NCBI GenBank assembly: GCA_017394835.1
Contig: JAFPXD010000024.1
Coordinates: 1-64,000, forward strand
Source of the DNA: Clostridia bacterium
GTDB lineage: Bacteria > Bacillota > Clostridia > Christensenellales > CAG-138
DNA length: 64,000 bases
Direction: 5' to 3'
Shown here in pieces: positions 20,551 through 37,228 of this stretch. Every line of letters starts with the position of its first letter. The stretch's first letter is position 1. The notes beneath the pieces are model-generated. The model saw nothing but the letters and a program-made list of their open reading frames with translations, was not told the DNA's origin and did no database searches. Made by a program: the position numbers and the translations under genes.

Positions 20551-20580
20551 TTGACAAATCCCCGCGTTTTATTCTATAAT
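20551..20580 (+). promoter_or_regulatory. sigma-A promoter of the lysine-fermentation operon
   Basis: -35 TTGACA (20551-20556), 18-bp spacer, -10 TATAAT (20575-20580), directly before the lysine riboswitch. Confidence 0.8.
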
Positions 20581-20582
20581 GA

Positions 20583-20752
20583 AACAAATAGAGGTGCGAA
20601 AACTCAGGTAGCTTTCCCCGTTCGGTGCTGCGGGGCATGGGGGGTGAATGGGGCTTTCGCCGAAGGTGCGCCGAGGTCCGCGGCGGCGCGTCTGGGCGTG
20701 CGCTCCAGCGGCGTACGACTGTCATTGATCACGTCAATGAAGCGCTATTGTT
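20583..20752 (+). promoter_or_regulatory. Lysine riboswitch (L-box) aptamer
   Basis: The segment carries the lysine-riboswitch core: ATAGAGGTGCG (20588-20598; B. subtilis lysC has AUAGAGGUGCGA), GGGGCTTTCGCCGAAGGT (20650-20667; lysC GUCGCCGAAG), GTCTGGGC (20690s) and GACTGTCATTGA (20718-20729; lysC GGCUGUCAAGA) with the P5 hairpin CATTGA/TCAATG. P1 is AACAAATAG (20583-20591) with CTATTGTT (20745-20752), one bulge. Its 3' P1 strand lies inside the following terminator stem, so lysine binding should block termination and switch the operon on. The class assignment is from recalled consensus, not a covariance search. Confidence 0.88.
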
Positions 20753-20789
20753 ACGGCCCTTCGCGGGGCCGCGGCAGCAGCGCCTTTTT
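20742..20789 (+). terminator. Riboswitch-controlled terminator
   Basis: GCGCTATTGTTACGGCCC (20742-20759) pairs with GGGCCGCGGCAGCAGCGC (about 20766-20783, with some wobble pairs), then TTTTT (20785-20789). It overlaps the aptamer's P1 3' strand at 20745-20752. Confidence 0.78.
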
Positions 20790-20824
20790 GATTTATTTAA
20801 GATAACACACGGAGGTACAATATC

Positions 20825-21232
20825 ATGGAAAACAAGATCACATCCACTATCCGTCTCCGCATGAGCGCACAGGATGCTCATTACGGCGGGAACCTTGTTG
20901 ACGGCGCGCACATGCTCGCCCTGTTCGGAGACGTTGCGACCGAGCTCCTCATAAAGCTCGACGGCGACGAAGGTCTCTTCAAGGCATACGATATGGTCGA
21001 GTTCATCGCTCCCGTTTTCGCGGGCGATTATATCGAGGCCTACGGTGAGATCACACATATCGGCAACACCTCCCGCAAGATGGTGTTCGAGGCAAGAAAG
21101 GTGATAGTTCCCCGTCCCGACATCAACGATTCCGCGTGCGACGTGCTCCCCGAGCCCATCGTCGTATGCAGGGCTTCCGGCACCTGCGTAGTCCCCAAGG
21201 ACAAGAAGCGCGGCAATTACGAGAACCTGTAA
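20825..21232 (+). CDS. kal: 3-aminobutyryl-CoA ammonia-lyase
   Basis: A 135-residue hot-dog-fold protein with the family pattern [43 protein letters not shown] and [10 protein letters not shown]. Kal removes ammonia from 3-aminobutyryl-CoA to give crotonyl-CoA, a late step of clostridial lysine fermentation to acetate and butyrate. It is first in the operon, 35 bp after the riboswitch terminator, with GGAGG before the ATG. The next gene, kce, makes its precursor, which supports the call. Confidence 0.9.
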
Positions 21233-21243
21233 GGAGGGCGTAA

Positions 21244-22071
21244 ATGGAAAAGCTCATAATCACCGCCGCCATCTGCGGTGCGGAAGTCACCAAGGAACAT
21301 AACCCCGCTGTCCCCTACACCGTTGAGGAAATGGTAAACGAGGCCCGCTCCGCTTACAACGCGGGCGCCGCCATAATCCACGTTCACGTCCGCCATGACG
21401 ACGGCACCCCCACTCAGGACCGCGAGCGCTTCCGCGTCGTTATGGACGCCATTCGCCGTGAGCTGCCCGACGTTATAATGATCCCCTCCACGGGCGGCGC
21501 CACCGGCATGAGCCCCGAGGAGCGTCTCCAGCCCACCGAGCTCTTCCCCGAAATGGCCACCCTCGACTGCGGCACCTGCAATTTCGGCGATGAGATATTC
21601 GACAACACCATGCCCAATATGCGCGTGTTCGGCAAGCGCATGATCGAGAACGGCATAAAGCCCGAATACGAATGCTTCGAAATGGGCCATATCGACACCA
21701 TCCTCGATATGGCGAGGAAGGGCGAGGTCCCCGGCGATCCCATGCAGTTCAACTTCGTTCTGGGCGTTAAGGGCTGCACCCCCGCGACCGTGCAGAATCT
21801 CTGCTGGATGGTCAACGCCATCCCCAAGGACGCGACCTGGACTTCCACCGGAGTCGGCCGCGCCGCGTTCCAGCTTGCCGCGCCCACCATCGTAATGGGC
21901 GGCAACGTGCGCGTCGGTTTCGAAGACAACATCTACCTTTCCCGCGGCGTTAAGGCAAAGTCCAACGGCGAACTCGTAGAAAAGGTCGTCAGGCTTTCCC
22001 GCGAGCTCGGGCGTGAGATCGCTTCCCCCGAAGAGGCGAGGCGGATCCTTTCCCTCAAGCCCCTCAAGTAA
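21244..22071 (+). CDS. kce: 3-keto-5-aminohexanoate cleavage enzyme (BKACE family)
   Basis: 275 residues of the DUF849/BKACE TIM-barrel family. Zinc and substrate motifs are visible: IITAAICGAEVTKEHNPAVP, the zinc H-x-H in IIHVHVRHDDG, PSTGGATGMSPEER, ECFEMGHID, and GGNVRVGFEDNIYL. Kce condenses 3-keto-5-aminohexanoate with acetyl-CoA to give acetoacetate and 3-aminobutyryl-CoA. AAGGAGGGCG precedes the ATG. Among many BKACE activities, the lysine-pathway role is fixed by neighbours kal and kdd. Confidence 0.93.
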   Translation: MEKLIITAAICGAEVTKEHNPAVPYTVEEMVNEARSAYNAGAAIIHVHVRHDDGTPTQDRERFRVVMDAIRRELPDVIMIPSTGGATGMSPEERLQPTELFPEMATLDCGTCNFGDEIFDNTMPNMRVFGKRMIENGIKPEYECFEMGHIDTILDMARKGEVPGDPMQFNFVLGVKGCTPATVQNLCWMVNAIPKDATWTSTGVGRAAFQLAAPTIVMGGNVRVGFEDNIYLSRGVKAKSNGELVEKVVRLSRELGREIASPEEARRILSLKPLK

Positions 22072-22146: not shown

Positions 22147-23187
22147 ATGGCACTCAAAGGCAACAAGTACGGTACTCACAGGGTCATCGAGCCCCAGGGC
22201 GTTCTCACTCAGGCCGCTTGGAAGATCGACAACGACATGACCAAGCATTATTCCAATGAGATCATCTGTGACGTTATCTCCCTGAACATCGACTCCGCTT
22301 CCTTCACCCAGATCGAGGAAGCCTGCGGCGGCGATGAGAAGAAGATCGGCGAAATGATAATGGGCATCGTCGCCGAGCGCGGCAAGCAGCAGAACCCCGT
22401 GACCGGTTCCGGCGGCATGTTCATCGGCAAGGTCGCCTACATCGGCGAAGACCTGAAGGACCGCGACCTCAAGGTGGGCGACAAGATCGCTTCCCTCGTT
22501 TCCCTGTCCCTCACTCCTCTCAAGATCGACAAGATCCTTGCCATCCATAAGGAGATCGACCGCGTCGATATAGTCGGTCAGGCCGTCCTGTTCGAGAGCG
22601 GCATCTATGCCAAGCTCCCCGATGATATGAGCGAGCCTCTCGCCCTTGCGGCTCTTGACGTTGCCGGCGCTCCCGCCCAGGCTCGCAAGCTCCCCAAGGA
22701 GGGCGACAGCGTCCTCATCCTCGGCGCAAACGGCAAATCCGGCGTTCTCTGCGGCTATGAGGCCATGAAGAAGGTCGGCCCCAAGGGCAACGTCGTCGGC
22801 GTAGTAAGGAACCCGAAGCAGGTCCCCGCTCTCATGGAGCTGGGCGTTTACAACAAGGTCATCGTCGCCTCCGCGACCGAGCCCATCGCGGTGCTGAACG
22901 CCGCTCTTGAGGCGAACGGCGGCAAGGAATACGATATCTCCATCTCCTGCGTCAACGTTGAGTCCTGCGAGATGAGCGCGATCCTCCCCGTTCGTGACGA
23001 CGGTATCGTTTACTTCTTCTCCATGGCGACCTCCTTCACCAAGGCCGCTCTCGGTGCAGAGGGCATCGGCAAGGACGTCACCATGATCGTCGGCAACGGC
23101 TACACCAAGGATCATGCCGAGATCACTCTGAACGTTCTCCGTGAGAACGAGAAGCTCCGCAAGCTCTTCGACGAGAAGTATTGCTAA
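22147..23187 (+). CDS. kdd: L-erythro-3,5-diaminohexanoate dehydrogenase
   Basis: 346 residues beginning with the family-typical MALKGNKYGTHRVIEPQGVL, with an NAD-binding loop VLILGANGKSGVLCGYEAM near residue 195. Kdd oxidatively deaminates 3,5-diaminohexanoate to 3-keto-5-aminohexanoate using NAD. It lies between kce and a lipoprotein gene, followed by a strong GC-rich hairpin (23201-23235). Confidence 0.93.
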   Translation: MALKGNKYGTHRVIEPQGVLTQAAWKIDNDMTKHYSNEIICDVISLNIDSASFTQIEEACGGDEKKIGEMIMGIVAERGKQQNPVTGSGGMFIGKVAYIGEDLKDRDLKVGDKIASLVSLSLTPLKIDKILAIHKEIDRVDIVGQAVLFESGIYAKLPDDMSEPLALAALDVAGAPAQARKLPKEGDSVLILGANGKSGVLCGYEAMKKVGPKGNVVGVVRNPKQVPALMELGVYNKVIVASATEPIAVLNAALEANGGKEYDISISCVNVESCEMSAILPVRDDGIVYFFSMATSFTKAALGAEGIGKDVTMIVGNGYTKDHAEITLNVLRENEKLRKLFDEKYC

Positions 23188-23260: not shown

Positions 23261-23920
23261 ATGAAAAAGCTTTTATCTTTATCGCTATGCGTACTGATCC
23301 TTATGACCTGCGCCTTCACGGGCTGCAAGAAGGAAGAGTACGTTCCCGAAGGCCCCACGGACGTCGATTACGGCGAGGTCGCGTATAAAGCCTATAATGA
23401 CGGCTCTGCGGTCACGTTCGATTATCTCGATTGCTTCACGACCTCCGTTGACGAGGAGGATCGGAACGATTCGTTCGTCGCCAACACTCCCGACGATAAG
23501 GGCGTGCTCTCCTATGAATTCTTTGATTCCTTCATAGATTACGAGCATTCGAGCGCGTATTACAAGATCCCCAGCCGCAAATACGCGGAGATCGCCGCCT
23601 ATTCCGATGAGGAAGCCCTCGATTACATGAAGATAATAATGGGCATGATCTCCTCGCAGAACGCGGAATACACCATTGAAAGCCACAAGTTCGAGGTGCG
23701 CGAGCACTACGTCTATCTGAGCCTTGAGGCGACCGCGACCTACAAGGTCACGGGCGAGATACAGAAGCTCTGGCTCGAAAAATTCGTAGTTGAGAACGAG
23801 CGCGTCTATACCGTTCAGGCTTTCGTGCCCGCCTCCTGCCTGACCAAATACGGCCCCGTTTTCAAGAACGTCGTTTTCGATATTGAAAACGCGCTCACGA
23901 ACGGCGCCGACGGTCAGTGA
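23261..23920 (+). CDS. Hypothetical lipoprotein inside the lysine-fermentation operon
   Basis: 219 residues. The N-terminus is a lipoprotein signal (SLCVLILMTCAFTGC lipobox; mature protein starts CKKEE). The rest is acidic and Tyr-rich, with a segment DYGEVAYKAYNDGSAVTFDYLDCF, an ARC-like alternation of helices and strands, and no motif I can name. It lies between kdd and kamA, in the same direction, with GAGAGG ten bases before the ATG. Position suggests an accessory role, such as a surface sensor or part of lysine uptake, but this is inference only. Confidence 0.6.
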   Translation: MKKLLSLSLCVLILMTCAFTGCKKEEYVPEGPTDVDYGEVAYKAYNDGSAVTFDYLDCFTTSVDEEDRNDSFVANTPDDKGVLSYEFFDSFIDYEHSSAYYKIPSRKYAEIAAYSDEEALDYMKIIMGMISSQNAEYTIESHKFEVREHYVYLSLEATATYKVTGEIQKLWLEKFVVENERVYTVQAFVPASCLTKYGPVFKNVVFDIENALTNGADGQ

Positions 23921-23953: not shown

Positions 23954-25234
23954 ATGGTAACCATCAATCAGAGCCGCGCATACGGTCTTTTCAAGGATGT
24001 TCCCGATGAGCTTTGGAACGACTGGCAGTGGCAGGTAGCCAACCGCATCGAGACCCTTGAGGATCTCAAAAAATACATCAAGCTCACTCCCGAGGAGGAG
24101 GATGGCGTAAAGAAATGCCTGGGCACCCTGCGCATGGCGATCACGCCCTATTATCTCTCCCTCATTAATCCCGACGATCCCTACGATCCCGTAAGGCGTC
24201 AGGCGATCCCCACCGCGCTCGAGCTTTATCAGGCTCCCGAAGATCAGCTCGATCCTCTCCATGAGGATACCGATTCTCCCGTTCCCGGCCTCACCCACAG
24301 GTATCCCGACCGCGTGCTCTTCCTCGTGACCGATCAGTGCTCCATGTACTGCCGTCACTGCACGAGGCGCCGCTTCGCCGGTCAGAACGACACCGCCGTT
24401 CCCGACTGCCAGGTCGAAGGCTGCCTTGAGTACATAAGGAACCACCCCGAGGTGCGCGACGTTCTGCTTTCCGGCGGCGACGCGCTCATGATCTCCGACG
24501 AGAAGCTGGAGTACATAATCTCCGAGCTCAGGAAGATCCCCCACGTTGAGATCGTCCGCATCGGCTCCCGCACCCCCGTCGTATGCCCCCAGAGGATCAC
24601 TCCCGCTCTCTGCAATATGCTGAAGAAGTATCATCCCATTTGGCTGAATACTCACTTCAATCATCCCAATGAGATCACCGAGGAGTCCAAGCGCGCCTGC
24701 GCGATGCTGGCCGACGCCGGCATCCCCCTGGGCAACCAGACGGTGCTCCTCCACGGCGTGAACGACTGCGTCCACGTAATGAAGAAGCTCGTTCAGGCGC
24801 TGGTCTATATCAGGGTCCGCCCCTATTATATCTACGTCTGCGATCTTTCGATGGGTCTTACCCATTTCCGCACCCCCGTTTCCAAGGGCATCGAGATAAT
24901 CGAGGGCCTGCGCGGTCATACCTCCGGCTATGCCGTGCCCACCTTCGTTGTTGACGCTCCCGGCGGCGGCGGCAAGACCCCCGTCATGCCCAACTACGTC
25001 ATAAGCCAGACCCCGAGGAAGACCATTTTGAGGAACTTCGAGGGCGTTATCACCACCTACACCGAGCCCGAGCATTATGAAGAGGACTGCCATTGCGAGG
25101 AATGCCGCAAGGCGAAGGAAGCCCGCTTCGAGCCCGTCGGCGTAGCGGGGCTCGAGCAGGGCCGCAAGGACGGCGCCATCTCGCTGGAGCCCAAGGGGCT
25201 TGCCCGTCTCGAAAGGGGCAGGAAGCATGACTGA
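23954..25234 (+). CDS. kamA: L-lysine 2,3-aminomutase
   Basis: 426-residue radical SAM enzyme with the cluster motif CSMYCRHCTRRRF, the PLP-lysine loop GGGKTPVMPNY, and the two lysine-specifying aspartates in CDLSMG and VVDAPGGG, which separate it from glutamate 2,3-aminomutases. The C-terminal CHCEEC supplies zinc ligands for the tetramer. It converts L-lysine to beta-lysine, the first step of fermentation. AAGAAAGG precedes the ATG; the stop overlaps kamD by 8 bp. Confidence 0.95.
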   Translation: MVTINQSRAYGLFKDVPDELWNDWQWQVANRIETLEDLKKYIKLTPEEEDGVKKCLGTLRMAITPYYLSLINPDDPYDPVRRQAIPTALELYQAPEDQLDPLHEDTDSPVPGLTHRYPDRVLFLVTDQCSMYCRHCTRRRFAGQNDTAVPDCQVEGCLEYIRNHPEVRDVLLSGGDALMISDEKLEYIISELRKIPHVEIVRIGSRTPVVCPQRITPALCNMLKKYHPIWLNTHFNHPNEITEESKRACAMLADAGIPLGNQTVLLHGVNDCVHVMKKLVQALVYIRVRPYYIYVCDLSMGLTHFRTPVSKGIEIIEGLRGHTSGYAVPTFVVDAPGGGGKTPVMPNYVISQTPRKTILRNFEGVITTYTEPEHYEEDCHCEECRKAKEARFEPVGVAGLEQGRKDGAISLEPKGLARLERGRKHD

Positions 25235-26780
25235 AAAGCTTCGTCTTAATGAAGAAAACGTAAAAAGGGCGCGTGAATCGGCCCGCAGGATAGCGGCCGA
25301 TACGCAGAGCTTCATTGATCTGCATACCACCGTCACCGTTGAGCGCACCGTCTGCCGTCTTTTGGGCATCGACGGCGTTAACGCGCTGGACGTTCCCCTT
25401 CCCAACGTGGTCGTGGATCACATGAACGAAAAGGGGCTCCTCGGCGTCGGCGCGGCTTACCTCATCGGCTCCGCGATGCTCGAAACGGGGCTCGATCCCC
25501 AGGGCGTTGCCGATGGCGTTGACGATGGCAGCATCGATCTTTCGAAGCTCCCGCCCCACTCCATAGAGGAGATAAGGGGAGTCATAATGCCCGTCGCGCA
25601 AAGCACCGTCGAAAGGATCAAAAAGAACGTCGCAAAGCGCGACGAGTATTTGAGCGAGTTCGGCGACAAGACCGATCCCTACCTTTACGTCATAGTCGCA
25701 ACGGGCAATATCTATGAGGATATCACCCAGGCGAAGGCGGCGGCCAAGCAGGGCGCGGATATAATCGCCGTCATAAGGACGACGGGTCAGAGCCTTCTCG
25801 ATTACGTTCCCTACGGCGCCACCACGGAGGGCTTCGGCGGCACCTACGCCACGCAGGAGAATTTCCGTCTCATGCGAGCGGCGCTGGATGAGGTCGGCGA
25901 GGAGCAGCACCGCTACATAAGGCTGTGCAATTACTGCTCCGGCCTCTGTATGCCCGAGATCGCCGCGATGGGCGCTCTTGAAAGGCTCGACGTTATGCTG
26001 AACGACGCGCTTTACGGCATCCTCTTCCGCGACATCAACCCCCAGCGCACCATTATCGACCAGTTCATGAGCCGCGTCATAAACTCCTTCGCGGGCGTCA
26101 TTATCAACACGGGCGAGGATAACTACCTCACCACTGCGGACGCCGTCGAGGAAGCGCACACGGTTCTCGCCTCGCAGTTCCTCAACGAGCAGTTCGCGCT
26201 CGAAGCGGGCCTTCCCGAGGAGCAGCAGGGTCTGGGCCACGCTTTCGAGATCGATCCCGACGTTGAAAACGGCTTCCTCTACGAGCTGGCGCAGGCGCAG
26301 ATGGCAAGGCAGATATTCCCCAAGGCTCCCTTGAAGTACATGCCCCCGACCAAGTTCATGACGGGCAACATATTCCGCGGCCACGTGCAGGATGCGCTCT
26401 TCAACATCGTTACCATTCTGACGGGTCAGAGGCTCCACCTGCTCGGCATGCTGACCGAGGCGATCCATACCCCCTTCATGAGCGACCGCGCGCTCTCCAT
26501 AGAAAACGCGCAGTACATATTCCGCACCATGCACGATCTGGGTGACGATATCACCTTCCGTGAGGGCGGCATTATGGAAACGAGGGCGAACGAAGTGCTT
26601 GCGAAGGCCGCGGATCTGCTTGCCGAAATAGAAAAGATGGGTCTCTTCGCCACTCTCGAAAAGGGCATCTTCGCCGACATCAAGCGCTCGCGCGACGGCG
26701 GCAAGGGCCTCTCCGGAGTCACGAAGAAGGATACCGTCTATTTCAACCCCTTCATCGAACTCATGAAAAGGAGCCTGTAA
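25227..26780 (+). CDS. kamD: Lysine 5,6-aminomutase, alpha subunit
   Basis: 517 residues, the TIM-barrel alpha subunit of the adenosylcobalamin- and PLP-dependent beta-lysine 5,6-aminomutase, which makes 3,5-diaminohexanoate. Family segments seen: GAAYLIGSAMLETGLDPQGVADGVDDG, DIIAVIRTTGQSLLDYVPYGATTEGFGG (in parts), and KYMPPTKFMTGNIFRGH. ATG 25227 overlaps the end of kamA, with GGGGCAGGA upstream; the earlier in-frame ATG at 25200 is inside kamA. Confidence 0.93.
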   Translation: MTEKLRLNEENVKRARESARRIAADTQSFIDLHTTVTVERTVCRLLGIDGVNALDVPLPNVVVDHMNEKGLLGVGAAYLIGSAMLETGLDPQGVADGVDDGSIDLSKLPPHSIEEIRGVIMPVAQSTVERIKKNVAKRDEYLSEFGDKTDPYLYVIVATGNIYEDITQAKAAAKQGADIIAVIRTTGQSLLDYVPYGATTEGFGGTYATQENFRLMRAALDEVGEEQHRYIRLCNYCSGLCMPEIAAMGALERLDVMLNDALYGILFRDINPQRTIIDQFMSRVINSFAGVIINTGEDNYLTTADAVEEAHTVLASQFLNEQFALEAGLPEEQQGLGHAFEIDPDVENGFLYELAQAQMARQIFPKAPLKYMPPTKFMTGNIFRGHVQDALFNIVTILTGQRLHLLGMLTEAIHTPFMSDRALSIENAQYIFRTMHDLGDDITFREGGIMETRANEVLAKAADLLAEIEKMGLFATLEKGIFADIKRSRDGGKGLSGVTKKDTVYFNPFIELMKRSL

Positions 26781-26783
26781 GTT

Positions 26784-27572
26784 ATGAGCAGCGGACTTTA
26801 CAATACGCATAAAGCGGATTTCGATACCCATTTCGATCCCACCCGCGTCAAGGCCTACGGCGATACGATGAACGACGGCAAGGTGCAGTTTTCATTCACC
26901 CTGCCCGTCAAGAACGATGAGCGCGGCGTAGAGGCCGCCCGTCAGCTCGTCCGCAAGATGGGCGTTGACGAGCCGAACGTCGCCTGCGCGAAAACGCTCG
27001 ATAAGGAGTTCACCTTCTTCGTCGTTTACGGCTCCGTTTCCCACTCCGTCGATTACGAGAACATCCACGTCGTTACCGTCGAAGAGGAAACGATGGGCAT
27101 GGAGGAGACGAACGAATACATCCGTGAGCATTTCGGACGCAAGATAGTGATGGTCGGCGCCTCCACCGGCACCGACGCGCACACAGTCGGCATCGACGCC
27201 ATTATGAACCGCAAGGGCTTTGCGGGGCATTACGGGCTCGAGCGTTACGAGATGATAGAGGCCTATAACTGGGGCGCGCAGATCCCGAACGAGGAGTTCG
27301 TCAAGAAGGCGCTCGAGGTGAACGCAGACGTTCTGCTCGTTTCGCAGACGGTCACGCAGAAGGATATCCACATCCAGAACCTGACCGAGCTCGTCGAGTA
27401 TCTTGAGGCGGAGGGCCTGCGCGACAGGTTCATCCTGATCTGCGGCGGCGCGCGCATAACGCACGAGCTCGCCAAGGAATTGGGCTACGACGCCGGCTTC
27501 GGCGCGGGCAAGTATGCCGATGACGTCGCCACCTTCGCAGTCACCGAAATGGTAAAGCGCGGGATGAAATAA
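26784..27572 (+). CDS. kamE: Lysine 5,6-aminomutase, beta subunit (B12-binding)
   Basis: 262 residues with the base-off cobalamin motif D-x-H-x2-G in GTDAHTVGIDAIMNRKG, followed by the PLP-lysine region GLERYEMIEAYN and the Rossmann-like B12 domain (VLLVSQTVTQKDIH, ILICGGARITHELA). It carries adenosylcobalamin and PLP for KamD. Last gene of the operon, three bases after kamD and followed by a strong terminator. Confidence 0.93.
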   Translation: MSSGLYNTHKADFDTHFDPTRVKAYGDTMNDGKVQFSFTLPVKNDERGVEAARQLVRKMGVDEPNVACAKTLDKEFTFFVVYGSVSHSVDYENIHVVTVEEETMGMEETNEYIREHFGRKIVMVGASTGTDAHTVGIDAIMNRKGFAGHYGLERYEMIEAYNWGAQIPNEEFVKKALEVNADVLLVSQTVTQKDIHIQNLTELVEYLEAEGLRDRFILICGGARITHELAKELGYDAGFGAGKYADDVATFAVTEMVKRGMK

Positions 27573-27636: not shown

Positions 27637-28638
27637 TCAGAAATCTATCTCATATTCGAAATAGCGGTTGTTCTCGGACTCCGCTTCTTTTTCCACTGAA
27701 ACGCTCACGTTGGCTTTCATTGATGAAAGAGCGGCGTCAATGCTTGCTGCGTCCTTAGATTTTATGCCCGAGGTGTTGCTCATTTTCAGCGTGTATATCT
27801 GATGAGTTATGGTGTTGTCGGACATTCTGAAAGATATGAGGTTTTGTATCTGCGGATCCTTTTTGAAATAGAGCAGCGTCGGCTGAACGGGCTTGTGACC
27901 GAGAAAATGCATTTCCGCGGCTATCTCGACCTTTGAAGCGTTGTTTTCAACAACCGAATGCTCCGCATTCATTTTTGCGGTTTCGCCCGCAATGGTTTTG
28001 ACGGCTGCTTTTGCCAAAGCCTGCTTTTTTGAGGATGATTGCGCGTATTCCTTATACGTTACCCTAAAATGCTTTGCACCGAGATCTTGAGCGATCTTCT
28101 GAAGCTCGCTTAACCGAGCAATCTTCAAATAGTTGAAATACTCGTCCAAAGCGATATAATGATTGCGGTCGCAGGGATCGACGTAATAGACTTCATTATC
28201 TAAATCCGGATAGAATGTAAGCCCGAAGCTGTGAAGGTATTCCGGGTAAATGTTGACTATGCGCAAGCCCTTATAATCGGATTCGTGGCCTATCGAACCT
28301 ATGCAGACCTCGCTTTCGGCATGCCTCTTATCCATCCCGACTAATCGAATCATTTTGGGCATGTTGAATTCCGGAGCTTCAAGATCGTCCTCGAACAGTG
28401 GGCGGAGAAGATTAATCTCAGCTTCGCGTTTGCTGGTTTCCCTCTTCTCGCTCCAACGGCGGGAAACGGAAGTAAGATCTTTTACGTCGATCCTGCCGTC
28501 TTTATTTTGATCGACTGCGGTAACGATGCGTTCCTTGGTCTTCTCCAAAAAACCGGGGGAATGTTTTTCAGCCTTTTCGGCAGTCTTTTTTTCGCCCTTT
28601 TTAGGGAGCTTGTTCTTTGGATCTTCGTTCTTGTTCAT
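27637..28638 (-). CDS. Hypothetical protein with an EF-hand-like calcium loop
   Basis: 333 residues. A Lys/Glu-rich N-terminus (no signal peptide) is followed by one clear EF-hand/dockerin-type loop, DQNKDGRIDVKDL (residues ~44-56). The middle part includes VCIGSIGHESDYKGLRIVNIYP and VYYVDPCDRNHYIALDEYF; the C-terminal ~130 residues are Ser/Ala/Lys-rich with alternating strands. No family recognised. Base composition is visibly lower in GC than neighbours and codon choice is looser, which suggests acquisition by transfer. It has its own strong promoter. Confidence 0.55.
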   Translation of the reverse strand: MNKNEDPKNKLPKKGEKKTAEKAEKHSPGFLEKTKERIVTAVDQNKDGRIDVKDLTSVSRRWSEKRETSKREAEINLLRPLFEDDLEAPEFNMPKMIRLVGMDKRHAESEVCIGSIGHESDYKGLRIVNIYPEYLHSFGLTFYPDLDNEVYYVDPCDRNHYIALDEYFNYLKIARLSELQKIAQDLGAKHFRVTYKEYAQSSSKKQALAKAAVKTIAGETAKMNAEHSVVENNASKVEIAAEMHFLGHKPVQPTLLYFKKDPQIQNLISFRMSDNTITHQIYTLKMSNTSGIKSKDAASIDAALSSMKANVSVSVEKEAESENNRYFEYEIDF

Positions 28639-36055: not shown

Positions 36056-36084
36056 TTGTATAAAACTCCCCGATATGCTATAAT
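36056..36084 (+). promoter_or_regulatory. sigma-A promoter of the cobalamin-controlled operon
   Basis: -35 TTGTAT (36056-36061), 17-bp spacer, -10 TATAAT (36079-36084). Confidence 0.65.
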
Positions 36085-36090
36085 CCTCAA

Positions 36091-36280
36091 GTACTGTTTG
36101 AGTGCCGGAGGCGCGTGTTATGCGTGCCGATGGGTAAAAGGGAACCGGGTGAAAATCCCGGACGAACCGGTCACTGTGAACGGCGAGCTCCCCTGCATTA
36201 CGCCATTGCTCCGTTTGGGCGAGAAGGCGCAGGGGCGCGTCGGAGCCGCAAGTCAGGAAACCTGCTCTTACGGAACGATG
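36091..36280 (+). promoter_or_regulatory. Cobalamin riboswitch
   Basis: Recognisable conserved blocks: GTGCCGATGGGTAAAAGGGA (36124-36143), the hairpin CCGGGTGAAAATCCCGG (36145-36161), TCACTGTGAAC (36171-36181) and the B12 box AAGTCAGGAAACCTGC (36250-36265). The segment between the hairpin and TCACTG reads ACGAACCGG rather than the more usual GGCCCCGC-like sequence, so it is a mild variant. It precedes cbiK, a cobalamin-synthesis gene, which fits repression by cobalamin. No covariance search was possible. Confidence 0.88.
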
Positions 36281-36358
36281 AGCTTTCTCCGGAGAAAAGC
36301 AGCTCGTCTGAACGCGGCCTTTTCGCGCATTTCGCACGGTCAGGCCGGTATCGGGTGT

Positions 36359-36439: not shown

Positions 36440-37228
36440 ATGAACAGCATCAAACCCGTTTTGCTCGTCGTCTCATTCGGCACGACCCATGAGGATACCT
36501 GCAGAAAGAACATCGGCGCCATTGAGGATGCGCTCCGCAGCGCGTTCCCGAATTATGAGATCCGCCGGGCCTTCACTTCAAAGGCGGTGGTGAACAAGCT
36601 CCGCGGGGAGGGCGTTTACGTCGATACCGTGAGCGAGGCGCTCACCCGGCTCGTGAACGAGGGCGTGCGCGAGGCCGTCCTCCAGCCGACGCATATAATG
36701 CCCGGCACGGAATATGAAATGATGAAGGCGGATGCGGGCGCTTTTTACGGCCGATTCGACCGCCTTTCGATAGGCAAGCCCCTGCTTTCGGAAGAGAGCG
36801 ATTACGACGAGGTGCAGAGGATAGTTTCAGGCTTCTGCGCAGAGTATTCGGATCCCGATACGGCCGTCGTACTCATGGGTCACGGCACGGTGCATAACGC
36901 GAACATAGGCTATGCAAAGCTGCAGAGGCGCATCAACGCCGGCGGCCGCTCCAACATATTCATCGGAACGGTCGAGGCGATGCCCACCGTCCACTATATC
37001 CGCGCGCTCATCCGCCTCGGCGATTACAAGCGCGTCGTTATGATGCCGTTTATGATAGTTGCGGGCGATCACGCCCGGAACGATATGGCGGGCGACGGCG
37101 AGGATTCATGGAAGAGCATTTTCGAGCAGGACGGCTTCAAAGTGGAATGCGTGCTGCGCGGCCTCGGCGAAAACGCGGAGATCCGCCGCCTGTTCGTTCG
37201 CCACGCTGCGGCGGCGATAACCGAATAA
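36440..37228 (+). CDS. cbiK: Sirohydrochlorin cobaltochelatase (anaerobic type)
   Basis: 262 residues of the CbiK family: N-terminal PVLLVVSFGTTHEDTC, VLQPTHIMPGTEYE with a metal-binding His, VVLMGHGTVHNAN and MIVAGDHARNDMAGD. It inserts cobalt into sirohydrochlorin in the early, oxygen-independent cobalamin pathway. It lies directly under the cobalamin riboswitch with AAGAAAGGG before the ATG. Its product supports the B12-dependent lysine 5,6-aminomutase encoded at 25-27 kb. No signal peptide, so cytoplasmic. Confidence 0.92.
   Translation: MNSIKPVLLVVSFGTTHEDTCRKNIGAIEDALRSAFPNYEIRRAFTSKAVVNKLRGEGVYVDTVSEALTRLVNEGVREAVLQPTHIMPGTEYEMMKADAGAFYGRFDRLSIGKPLLSEESDYDEVQRIVSGFCAEYSDPDTAVVLMGHGTVHNANIGYAKLQRRINAGGRSNIFIGTVEAMPTVHYIRALIRLGDYKRVVMMPFMIVAGDHARNDMAGDGEDSWKSIFEQDGFKVECVLRGLGENAEIRRLFVRHAAAAITE

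What the first reader, a model, noticed from the sequence alone, without database searches (positions are those of the whole stretch)
20551..20824. A lysine riboswitch wired as an ON switch for lysine fermentation
Seen: a lysine-aptamer core follows a strong promoter, and the 3' strand of its P1 helix (20745-20752) lies inside the 5' arm of an intrinsic terminator (20742-20789). P1 and the terminator exclude each other directly, with no separate anti-terminator needed. Known: typical lysine riboswitches repress biosynthesis or uptake. Inference: here lysine stabilises P1, breaks the terminator and lets kal-kce-kdd-kamADE be made. Positive lysine control of catabolic operons has been proposed from comparative genomics, but the architecture here is very clear.
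Basis: partly seen in the sequence, partly recalled or inferred. Interest (0 to 1): 0.75.

Follow-up and report, generated by a model that had tools for sequence, protein, structure and literature searches.

The report
Lysine-activated riboswitch for lysine fermentation
A lysine-sensing RNA in front of a gut bacterium's lysine-eating operon is built so that lysine prevents an early transcription stop and switches the genes on; this reversed logic had been predicted before, and about 75 related leaders show it is the rule for this operon in these bacteria.

Summary
Rfam's Lysine model hits 20581-20755 (75 bits, E 7e-18) behind a perfect TTGACA-18-TATAAT promoter. The P1 3' strand lies in the 5' arm of an intrinsic terminator (20742-20783 plus U5), and the next gene starts a complete kal-kce-kdd-(lipoprotein)-kamA-kamD-kamE operon. 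Folding favours the terminator over P1 by about 8 kcal/mol without ligand.

The decisive evidence is comparative. Of 62 lysine riboswitches before this operon in the family, 60 have a terminator overlapping P1; of 38 before lysine biosynthesis or transport genes only 5 do, all weakly (p about 1e-18). Outside the family, 14 of 15 agree. Both partners of the P1 3' strand co-vary with it. Ten genomes carry both kinds, and the genus lacks DapA. An ON switch for lysine fermentation is very likely, though not assayed.

The idea is not new: ON-logic lysine riboswitches and positive control of kal/kce operons were proposed in 2003-2017. The window is a new member of a known kind.

New, as far as I could find: 21 relatives carry a second copy of the aptamer's 3' half after the first terminator, followed by another hairpin of the same design.

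The parts
20551..20580 (+). sigma-70-type promoter, TTGACA-18-TATAAT
   Evidence: consensus scan, 12 of 12
20581..20755 (+). lysine riboswitch aptamer (RF00168)
   Evidence: cmscan 75.3 bits, E 7.2e-18, model 1-182
20586..20591 (+). P1 5' strand AAATAG, at or next to the expected transcription start
   Evidence: Rfam alignment; start inferred from -10 position
20745..20750 (+). P1 3' strand CTATTG, the switching strand
   Evidence: Rfam alignment; covariation with both partners
20742..20789 (+). intrinsic terminator: stem 20742-20783, U5 20785-20789; its 5' arm contains the P1 3' strand
   Evidence: folding and z-score
20811..20815 (+). ribosome binding site GGAGG, downstream of and outside the terminator stem
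   Evidence: sequence
20825..21232 (+). kal, 3-aminobutyryl-CoA ammonia lyase
   Evidence: NF052388 equivalog above cut-off
21244..22071 (+). kce, 3-keto-5-aminohexanoate cleavage enzyme
   Evidence: NF052387 equivalog above cut-off; BKACE
22147..23187 (+). kdd, L-erythro-3,5-diaminohexanoate dehydrogenase
   Evidence: NF052381 equivalog above cut-off
23261..23920 (+). lipoprotein-like gene of unknown family inside the operon
   Evidence: open frame with lipobox-like start; no Pfam or NCBIfam hit
23954..25234 (+). kamA, lysine 2,3-aminomutase
   Evidence: TIGR03820 equivalog above cut-off
25227..26780 (+). kamD, lysine 5,6-aminomutase alpha subunit
   Evidence: NF052384 equivalog above cut-off
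26784..27572 (+). kamE, lysine 5,6-aminomutase beta subunit
   Evidence: NF052385 equivalog above cut-off

Best explanation
This is a transcription-terminating lysine riboswitch with ON logic. Shown: a full lysine aptamer lies behind a strong promoter, its P1 3' strand is also part of the lower 5' arm of an intrinsic terminator, and the RBS lies outside the terminator. Inferred: without lysine the short P1 is displaced, the terminator forms and transcription stops at about 20789. With lysine, binding locks P1 and J5/1, the 5' arm is withheld, only the upper hairpin (20754-20771) can form, 13 nt away from the U tract, and polymerase reads on into kal-kce-kdd-kamADE. The host, which appears unable to make lysine, thus pays for the lysine-to-acetate/butyrate enzymes only when external lysine is plentiful.
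For: Rfam hit; operon identity; terminator z -3.0 and about 7.6 kcal/mol preference for the terminator over P1 without ligand; P1-overlapping geometry in 60 of 62 leaders of the same operon against 5 of 38 leaders of lysA, lysC-dapA-dapB or transporter genes, p 9e-19, in 15 genera, with 10 genomes carrying both kinds; 14 of 15 leaders outside the family; P1 3' positions 5-6 take all four bases while P1 5' and the terminator 3' arm compensate; rarely seen in shuffles; no DapA in 13 of 13 genus genomes and no DapB in the host.
Against: No binding or transcription data. The U tract is short (C then U5). P1 may be only 5 pairs if transcription starts at 20587. The aptamer scores lower than many biosynthetic ones (75 bits) and lacks two nucleotides of the consensus P2 asymmetric bulge, so affinity may be weak. 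Nearest-neighbour folding does not model tertiary structure or kinetics, and the terminator partners come from predicted folds. Related leaders are not independent observations.
Confidence: 0.9

Rival explanations
1. A conventional OFF lysine riboswitch in which lysine favours termination.
For: Most characterised lysine riboswitches are OFF switches, and 28 of 38 non-catabolic leaders in this family have only a downstream non-overlapping terminator, the OFF layout.
Against: The window has no such downstream terminator and no antiterminator; its only terminator needs the P1 3' strand. OFF logic would shut lysine catabolism exactly when lysine is abundant.
Confidence: 0.03
2. The same ON device, but the aptamer answers mainly to another molecule of the pathway, such as beta-lysine, D-lysine or a 3,5-diaminohexanoate.
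For: The aptamer is a somewhat divergent RF00168 member (75 bits, shortened P2 bulge) and regulates only catabolism.
Against: The core segments of the Rfam consensus (AGAGGUGCG, GUGAA, GCCGAAG, CUGGG, ACUGUCA, GCUA) are intact in the alignment, and sister leaders before lysine biosynthesis genes match the same family.
Confidence: 0.05
3. The hairpin is a constitutive attenuator or processing site and the aptamer works by another route, such as translation.
For: Some lysine riboswitches act on translation or RNase E cleavage (literature cited in PMC13273304).
Against: The RBS is free of the predicted stem, and the overlap with P1 is conserved and co-varies across the family.
Confidence: 0.02

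Closest known systems
Predicted ON-logic lysine riboswitches (Rodionov et al. 2003, as cited in Barrick and Breaker 2007, PMC2258182)
   Same: Ligand binding buries part of a terminator stem; no separate antiterminator.
   Different: Nothing in principle; here the claim is tested on 77 leaders with a contrasting set from the same family of genomes.
Lysine riboswitches before kal/kce in Clostridium sticklandii, Fusobacterium nucleatum and Thermoanaerobacter (Mukherjee et al. 2017, PMC5584792)
   Same: Same aptamer family, same catabolic genes, positive control proposed.
   Different: That paper's section on this does not describe the expression platform; here one leader heads the whole kal-kce-kdd-kamADE operon in Christensenella-related Clostridia.
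Full aptamer-plus-terminator covariation model for lysine riboswitches (2026, PMC13273304)
   Same: Aptamer and expression platform share more sequence than in B. subtilis lysC, and short post-aptamer regions (25-50 nt) were used.
   Different: The passage read does not tie the model to catabolic genes or ON logic.
B. subtilis lysC L-box riboswitch
   Same: Same aptamer class.
   Different: OFF logic with an antiterminator and downstream terminator (established knowledge).
Adenine pbuE and glycine gcvT ON riboswitches
   Same: ON logic with a terminator that competes with the aptamer (established knowledge).
   Different: Different ligands and aptamers.

Membership tests
Lysine riboswitch (RF00168) | Five-helix aptamer scoring above the Rfam gathering threshold | tested here: met
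   75.3 bits against 30, model positions 1-182
Lysine riboswitch (RF00168) | Conserved core segments around the junction | tested here: met
   AGAGGUGCG, GCCGAAG, CUGGG, ACUGUCA and GCUA present in the alignment
Lysine riboswitch (RF00168) | K-turn/loop E asymmetric bulge in P2 | tested here: inconclusive
   Two consensus nucleotides missing; PMC2258182 notes natural variants lacking the K-turn
Lysine riboswitch (RF00168) | Binds L-lysine | not testable with these tools
   Needs in-line probing or calorimetry
ON-logic transcriptional riboswitch | Terminator arm shared with a ligand-stabilised aptamer helix | tested here: met
   P1 3' strand inside terminator 5' arm, conserved in 60/62 leaders
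ON-logic transcriptional riboswitch | No antiterminator or downstream OFF terminator before the gene | tested here: met
   Only P1-overlapping hairpins found between aptamer and kal
ON-logic transcriptional riboswitch | Ligand raises read-through | not testable with these tools
   Needs single-round transcription
Lysine fermentation operon | KAL, KCE, KDD, KamA, KamD, KamE present | tested here: met
   All six above NCBIfam equivalog cut-offs

The most novel reading that the evidence does not exclude
The window holds the simple form of a lysine-fermentation ON switch that other Clostridia have elaborated into a serial device. After the first ON terminator the aptamer's 3' half (P5 3' strand, J5/1, P1 3' strand) is repeated and followed by a second hairpin of the same design, usually with a U tract. 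One 5' half can then pair with either 3' half, and the freed 3' arm of the first terminator can pair with the second copy, so the two checkpoints could act as a relay that tightens the OFF state.
Probability: 0.5. Interest if true: 0.65.

Novelty: new member of a known kind. Interest (0 to 1): 0.45.

Why it matters
ON-logic lysine riboswitches have been predicted for two decades, but I found no experimental test in the open literature. This leader is compact, has a perfect promoter, and sits in a genus that seems unable to make lysine, so it is a clean test case. The family also supplies matched OFF versions of the same aptamer, sometimes in the same genome, for asking how evolution flips the sign of a switch. 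Lysine-to-butyrate fermentation is relevant to gut microbiology, and lysine-ON elements could serve as biosensors.

Tried and rejected
OFF logic was rejected for lack of any non-overlapping terminator in the leader. One search's first automatic rule flagged a lysA leader (L052) as ON; its compact terminator lies downstream of P1, so the rule was tightened. The two family exceptions are L053, whose full hairpin does overlap P1 although the compact-core rule misses it, and L089, with no clear terminator. Outside the family L182 seems by eye to have a P1-overlapping hairpin without a good U tract. A class-wide RF00168 search was not used for the census because its match list is cut to the best scores and loses catabolic aptamers. 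An exact pattern for the tandem form found one match in 391 class genomes; the matched sequence does not look like a leader and was taken as chance, so that pattern is too strict to measure frequency. Rodionov 2003 and Garst 2012 are not held and could not be read. A covariance search without a built model failed.

Full report
OBSERVATION. Infernal against Rfam 15 gives one lysine riboswitch in the window, 20581-20755 (+), model 1-182, 75.3 bits, E 7.2e-18, and one in the whole host assembly. A 12-of-12 promoter ends at 20580. By the usual 6-8 nt distance, transcription starts at 20586-20588, inside or at the first base of the P1 5' strand AAATAG (inference).

EXPRESSION PLATFORM. Bases 20739-20790 fold into a hairpin of -27.2 kcal/mol, z -3.0: lower stem 20742-20746 with 20779-20783, middle 20748-20752 with 20773-20777, upper 20754-20760 with 20765-20771, then CUUUUUG. 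Five of the six P1 3' bases (20745-20746 and 20748-20750) pair in the terminator. Folding 20586-20789 gives -88.3 kcal/mol with the terminator forced and -80.7 with P1 forced, so the ligand-free default is termination. In the P1-forced fold the upper hairpin survives but the lower stem does not, leaving 13 nt to the U tract, which should not terminate (inference). In 400 dinucleotide shuffles of the region after P1, a P1-overlapping terminator of -15 or better appeared 10 times. The GGAGG at 20811-20815 lies outside the stem, so a transcriptional mechanism is preferred.

OPERON. NCBIfam equivalogs above cut-off identify KAL, KCE, KDD, KamA, KamD and KamE in order. A lipoprotein-like gene without family (23261-23920) lies between kdd and kamA; the neighbouring gene downstream, 27637-28638, is on the other strand. 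DapA (PF00701) is absent from the host and from all 13 genomes searched in the genus (host included), while the control genomes all ring; DapB is absent from the host; there is one weak LysA-type C-terminal domain hit. The genus therefore probably depends on external lysine, which suits a catabolic ON switch. Its nearest named relatives are rumen and gut Clostridia, one labelled Christensenella sp..

COMPARATIVE TEST. 79 of 103 genomes of the family hold 100 lysine riboswitches including the window. I fetched them and classed them by the next genes: 62 stand before the KAL operon. Of the other 38, 36 stand before NhaC-type transporters, ABC amino-acid transporters, lysA or lysC-dapA-dapB, and two are unassigned. 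With one fixed rule (U tract, hairpin of -9 kcal/mol or better, compact core, at least 3 P1 3' bases in the 5' arm), 60 of 62 catabolic leaders have the P1-overlapping terminator, against 5 of 38 others; Fisher p 9e-19. Those five overlapping hairpins are weak (about -9 to -12 kcal/mol), and four of the five leaders also have a stronger downstream terminator. The 62 catabolic leaders come from 15 genera, and 10 genomes carry both a catabolic and a non-catabolic riboswitch. Related genomes are not independent, so the p-value is only a guide; the spread over genera is the stronger argument. Among KAL loci from a public genome collection, 19 of 60 scanned had an RF00168 hit upstream. After removing four contigs already in the family set, 14 of 15 have the same geometry, including Proteocatella sphenisci, Lachnospiraceae, Oscillospiraceae and Clostridium.

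COVARIATION. In 74 such leaders the last two bases of the P1 3' strand take all four letters. P1 pairing holds in 64 and 47 of 74 cells there, through A-U, G-C, U-A and G-U pairs, and terminator pairing holds in 71 of 74 at both positions with C-G, U-A, A-U, G-C and G-U types. The terminator partners were taken from predicted folds, so the second count leans towards pairing. Still, in many leaders the terminator 3' arm is an outright copy of the P1 5' strand (for example P1 5' TGGTAG, P1 3' CTATCA, terminator TTGGTAG in L086), which is what strand competition requires.

PRIOR ART. Barrick and Breaker 2007 (PMC2258182) state that certain lysine riboswitches with ON logic bury terminator stems, citing Rodionov 2003, which was not readable here. 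Mukherjee 2017 (PMC5584792) reports lysine riboswitches before kal/kce in C. sticklandii, F. nucleatum and Thermoanaerobacter as positively regulating. A 2026 covariation study (PMC13273304) finds that the lysine aptamer and terminator share more sequence than in B. subtilis lysC. Searches for an experimental lysine-ON riboswitch before this pathway found none in the open library; subscription papers were not searchable. The window is therefore a well-supported new member of a predicted kind.

A SIDE FINDING THAT MAY BE NEWER. In 18 family leaders and 3 external ones, the segment from the P5 3' strand through J5/1 to the P1 3' strand is repeated 49-90 nt downstream, after the first terminator, and leads into a second hairpin of the same design, usually followed by a U tract. 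In L135 the last 20 nt (GGTTACATGAAGCGCTATTG) are identical in both copies. Copy 2 could form 114 of 119 of the outer P5 pairs with the single P5 5' strand, against 39% at random placements, and none of the 38 non-catabolic leaders has the repeat; copies were found with a pattern covering J5/1 and P1 only, so the P5 agreement is not built in by the P5 letters themselves. Rfam itself aligned the aptamer to an apparent second copy in L094 and L097 (long matches of 224-230 nt). A relay is conceivable: when lysine holds copy 1 in the aptamer, the freed 3' arm of terminator 1 can pair with copy 2 before terminator 2 is complete. At equilibrium terminator 2 usually wins, so this would have to be kinetic. 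The alternative is a second chance for the aptamer to bind lysine after a leaky first stop. Complete tandem lysine riboswitches are known (PMC9481103); I found no description of a shared 5' half with two 3' halves. The window itself has only one copy.

LIMITS. No assay was run. Folding ignores tertiary contacts. The transcription start is inferred. The host is a 93%-complete assembly.

Noticed in passing
L135, L133, L138, L071, L059, L074, L072, L088, L084, L061, L073 and others; about 49-90 nt after the first P1 3' strand: The aptamer's 3' half (P5 3' strand, J5/1, P1 3' strand) is repeated after the first terminator and leads into a second hairpin of the same ON design, usually with a U tract; 21 catabolic leaders, none of 38 others.
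   Followed up: partly
window 36083-36283 and 36440-37228: A cobalamin riboswitch (102.6 bits) precedes a CbiK-like sirohydrochlorin cobaltochelatase gene (below the curated cut-off) about 9 kb from the B12-dependent kamDE genes.
   Followed up: partly
window 23261-23920: A lipoprotein-like gene of no known family sits inside the operon between kdd and kamA; a gap of similar size is seen in the other genomes of the genus and in L051.
   Followed up: no
whole genome and genus: DapA is missing from all 13 genomes of the genus and DapB from the host, suggesting that the genus cannot make lysine or diaminopimelate by the usual route.
   Followed up: partly
L100 and related loci before NhaC-type transporters: A group of lysine riboswitches, mostly with downstream (OFF-type) terminators, precedes NhaC/Tet(35)-like antiporter-family genes, possible lysine transporters.
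   Followed up: no
L149, L172, L182 (Clostridium): A P1-overlapping hairpin seems present by eye but its U tract is weak or missing, and L149 and L182 have a further terminator downstream; the logic of these leaders is unclear.
   Followed up: no
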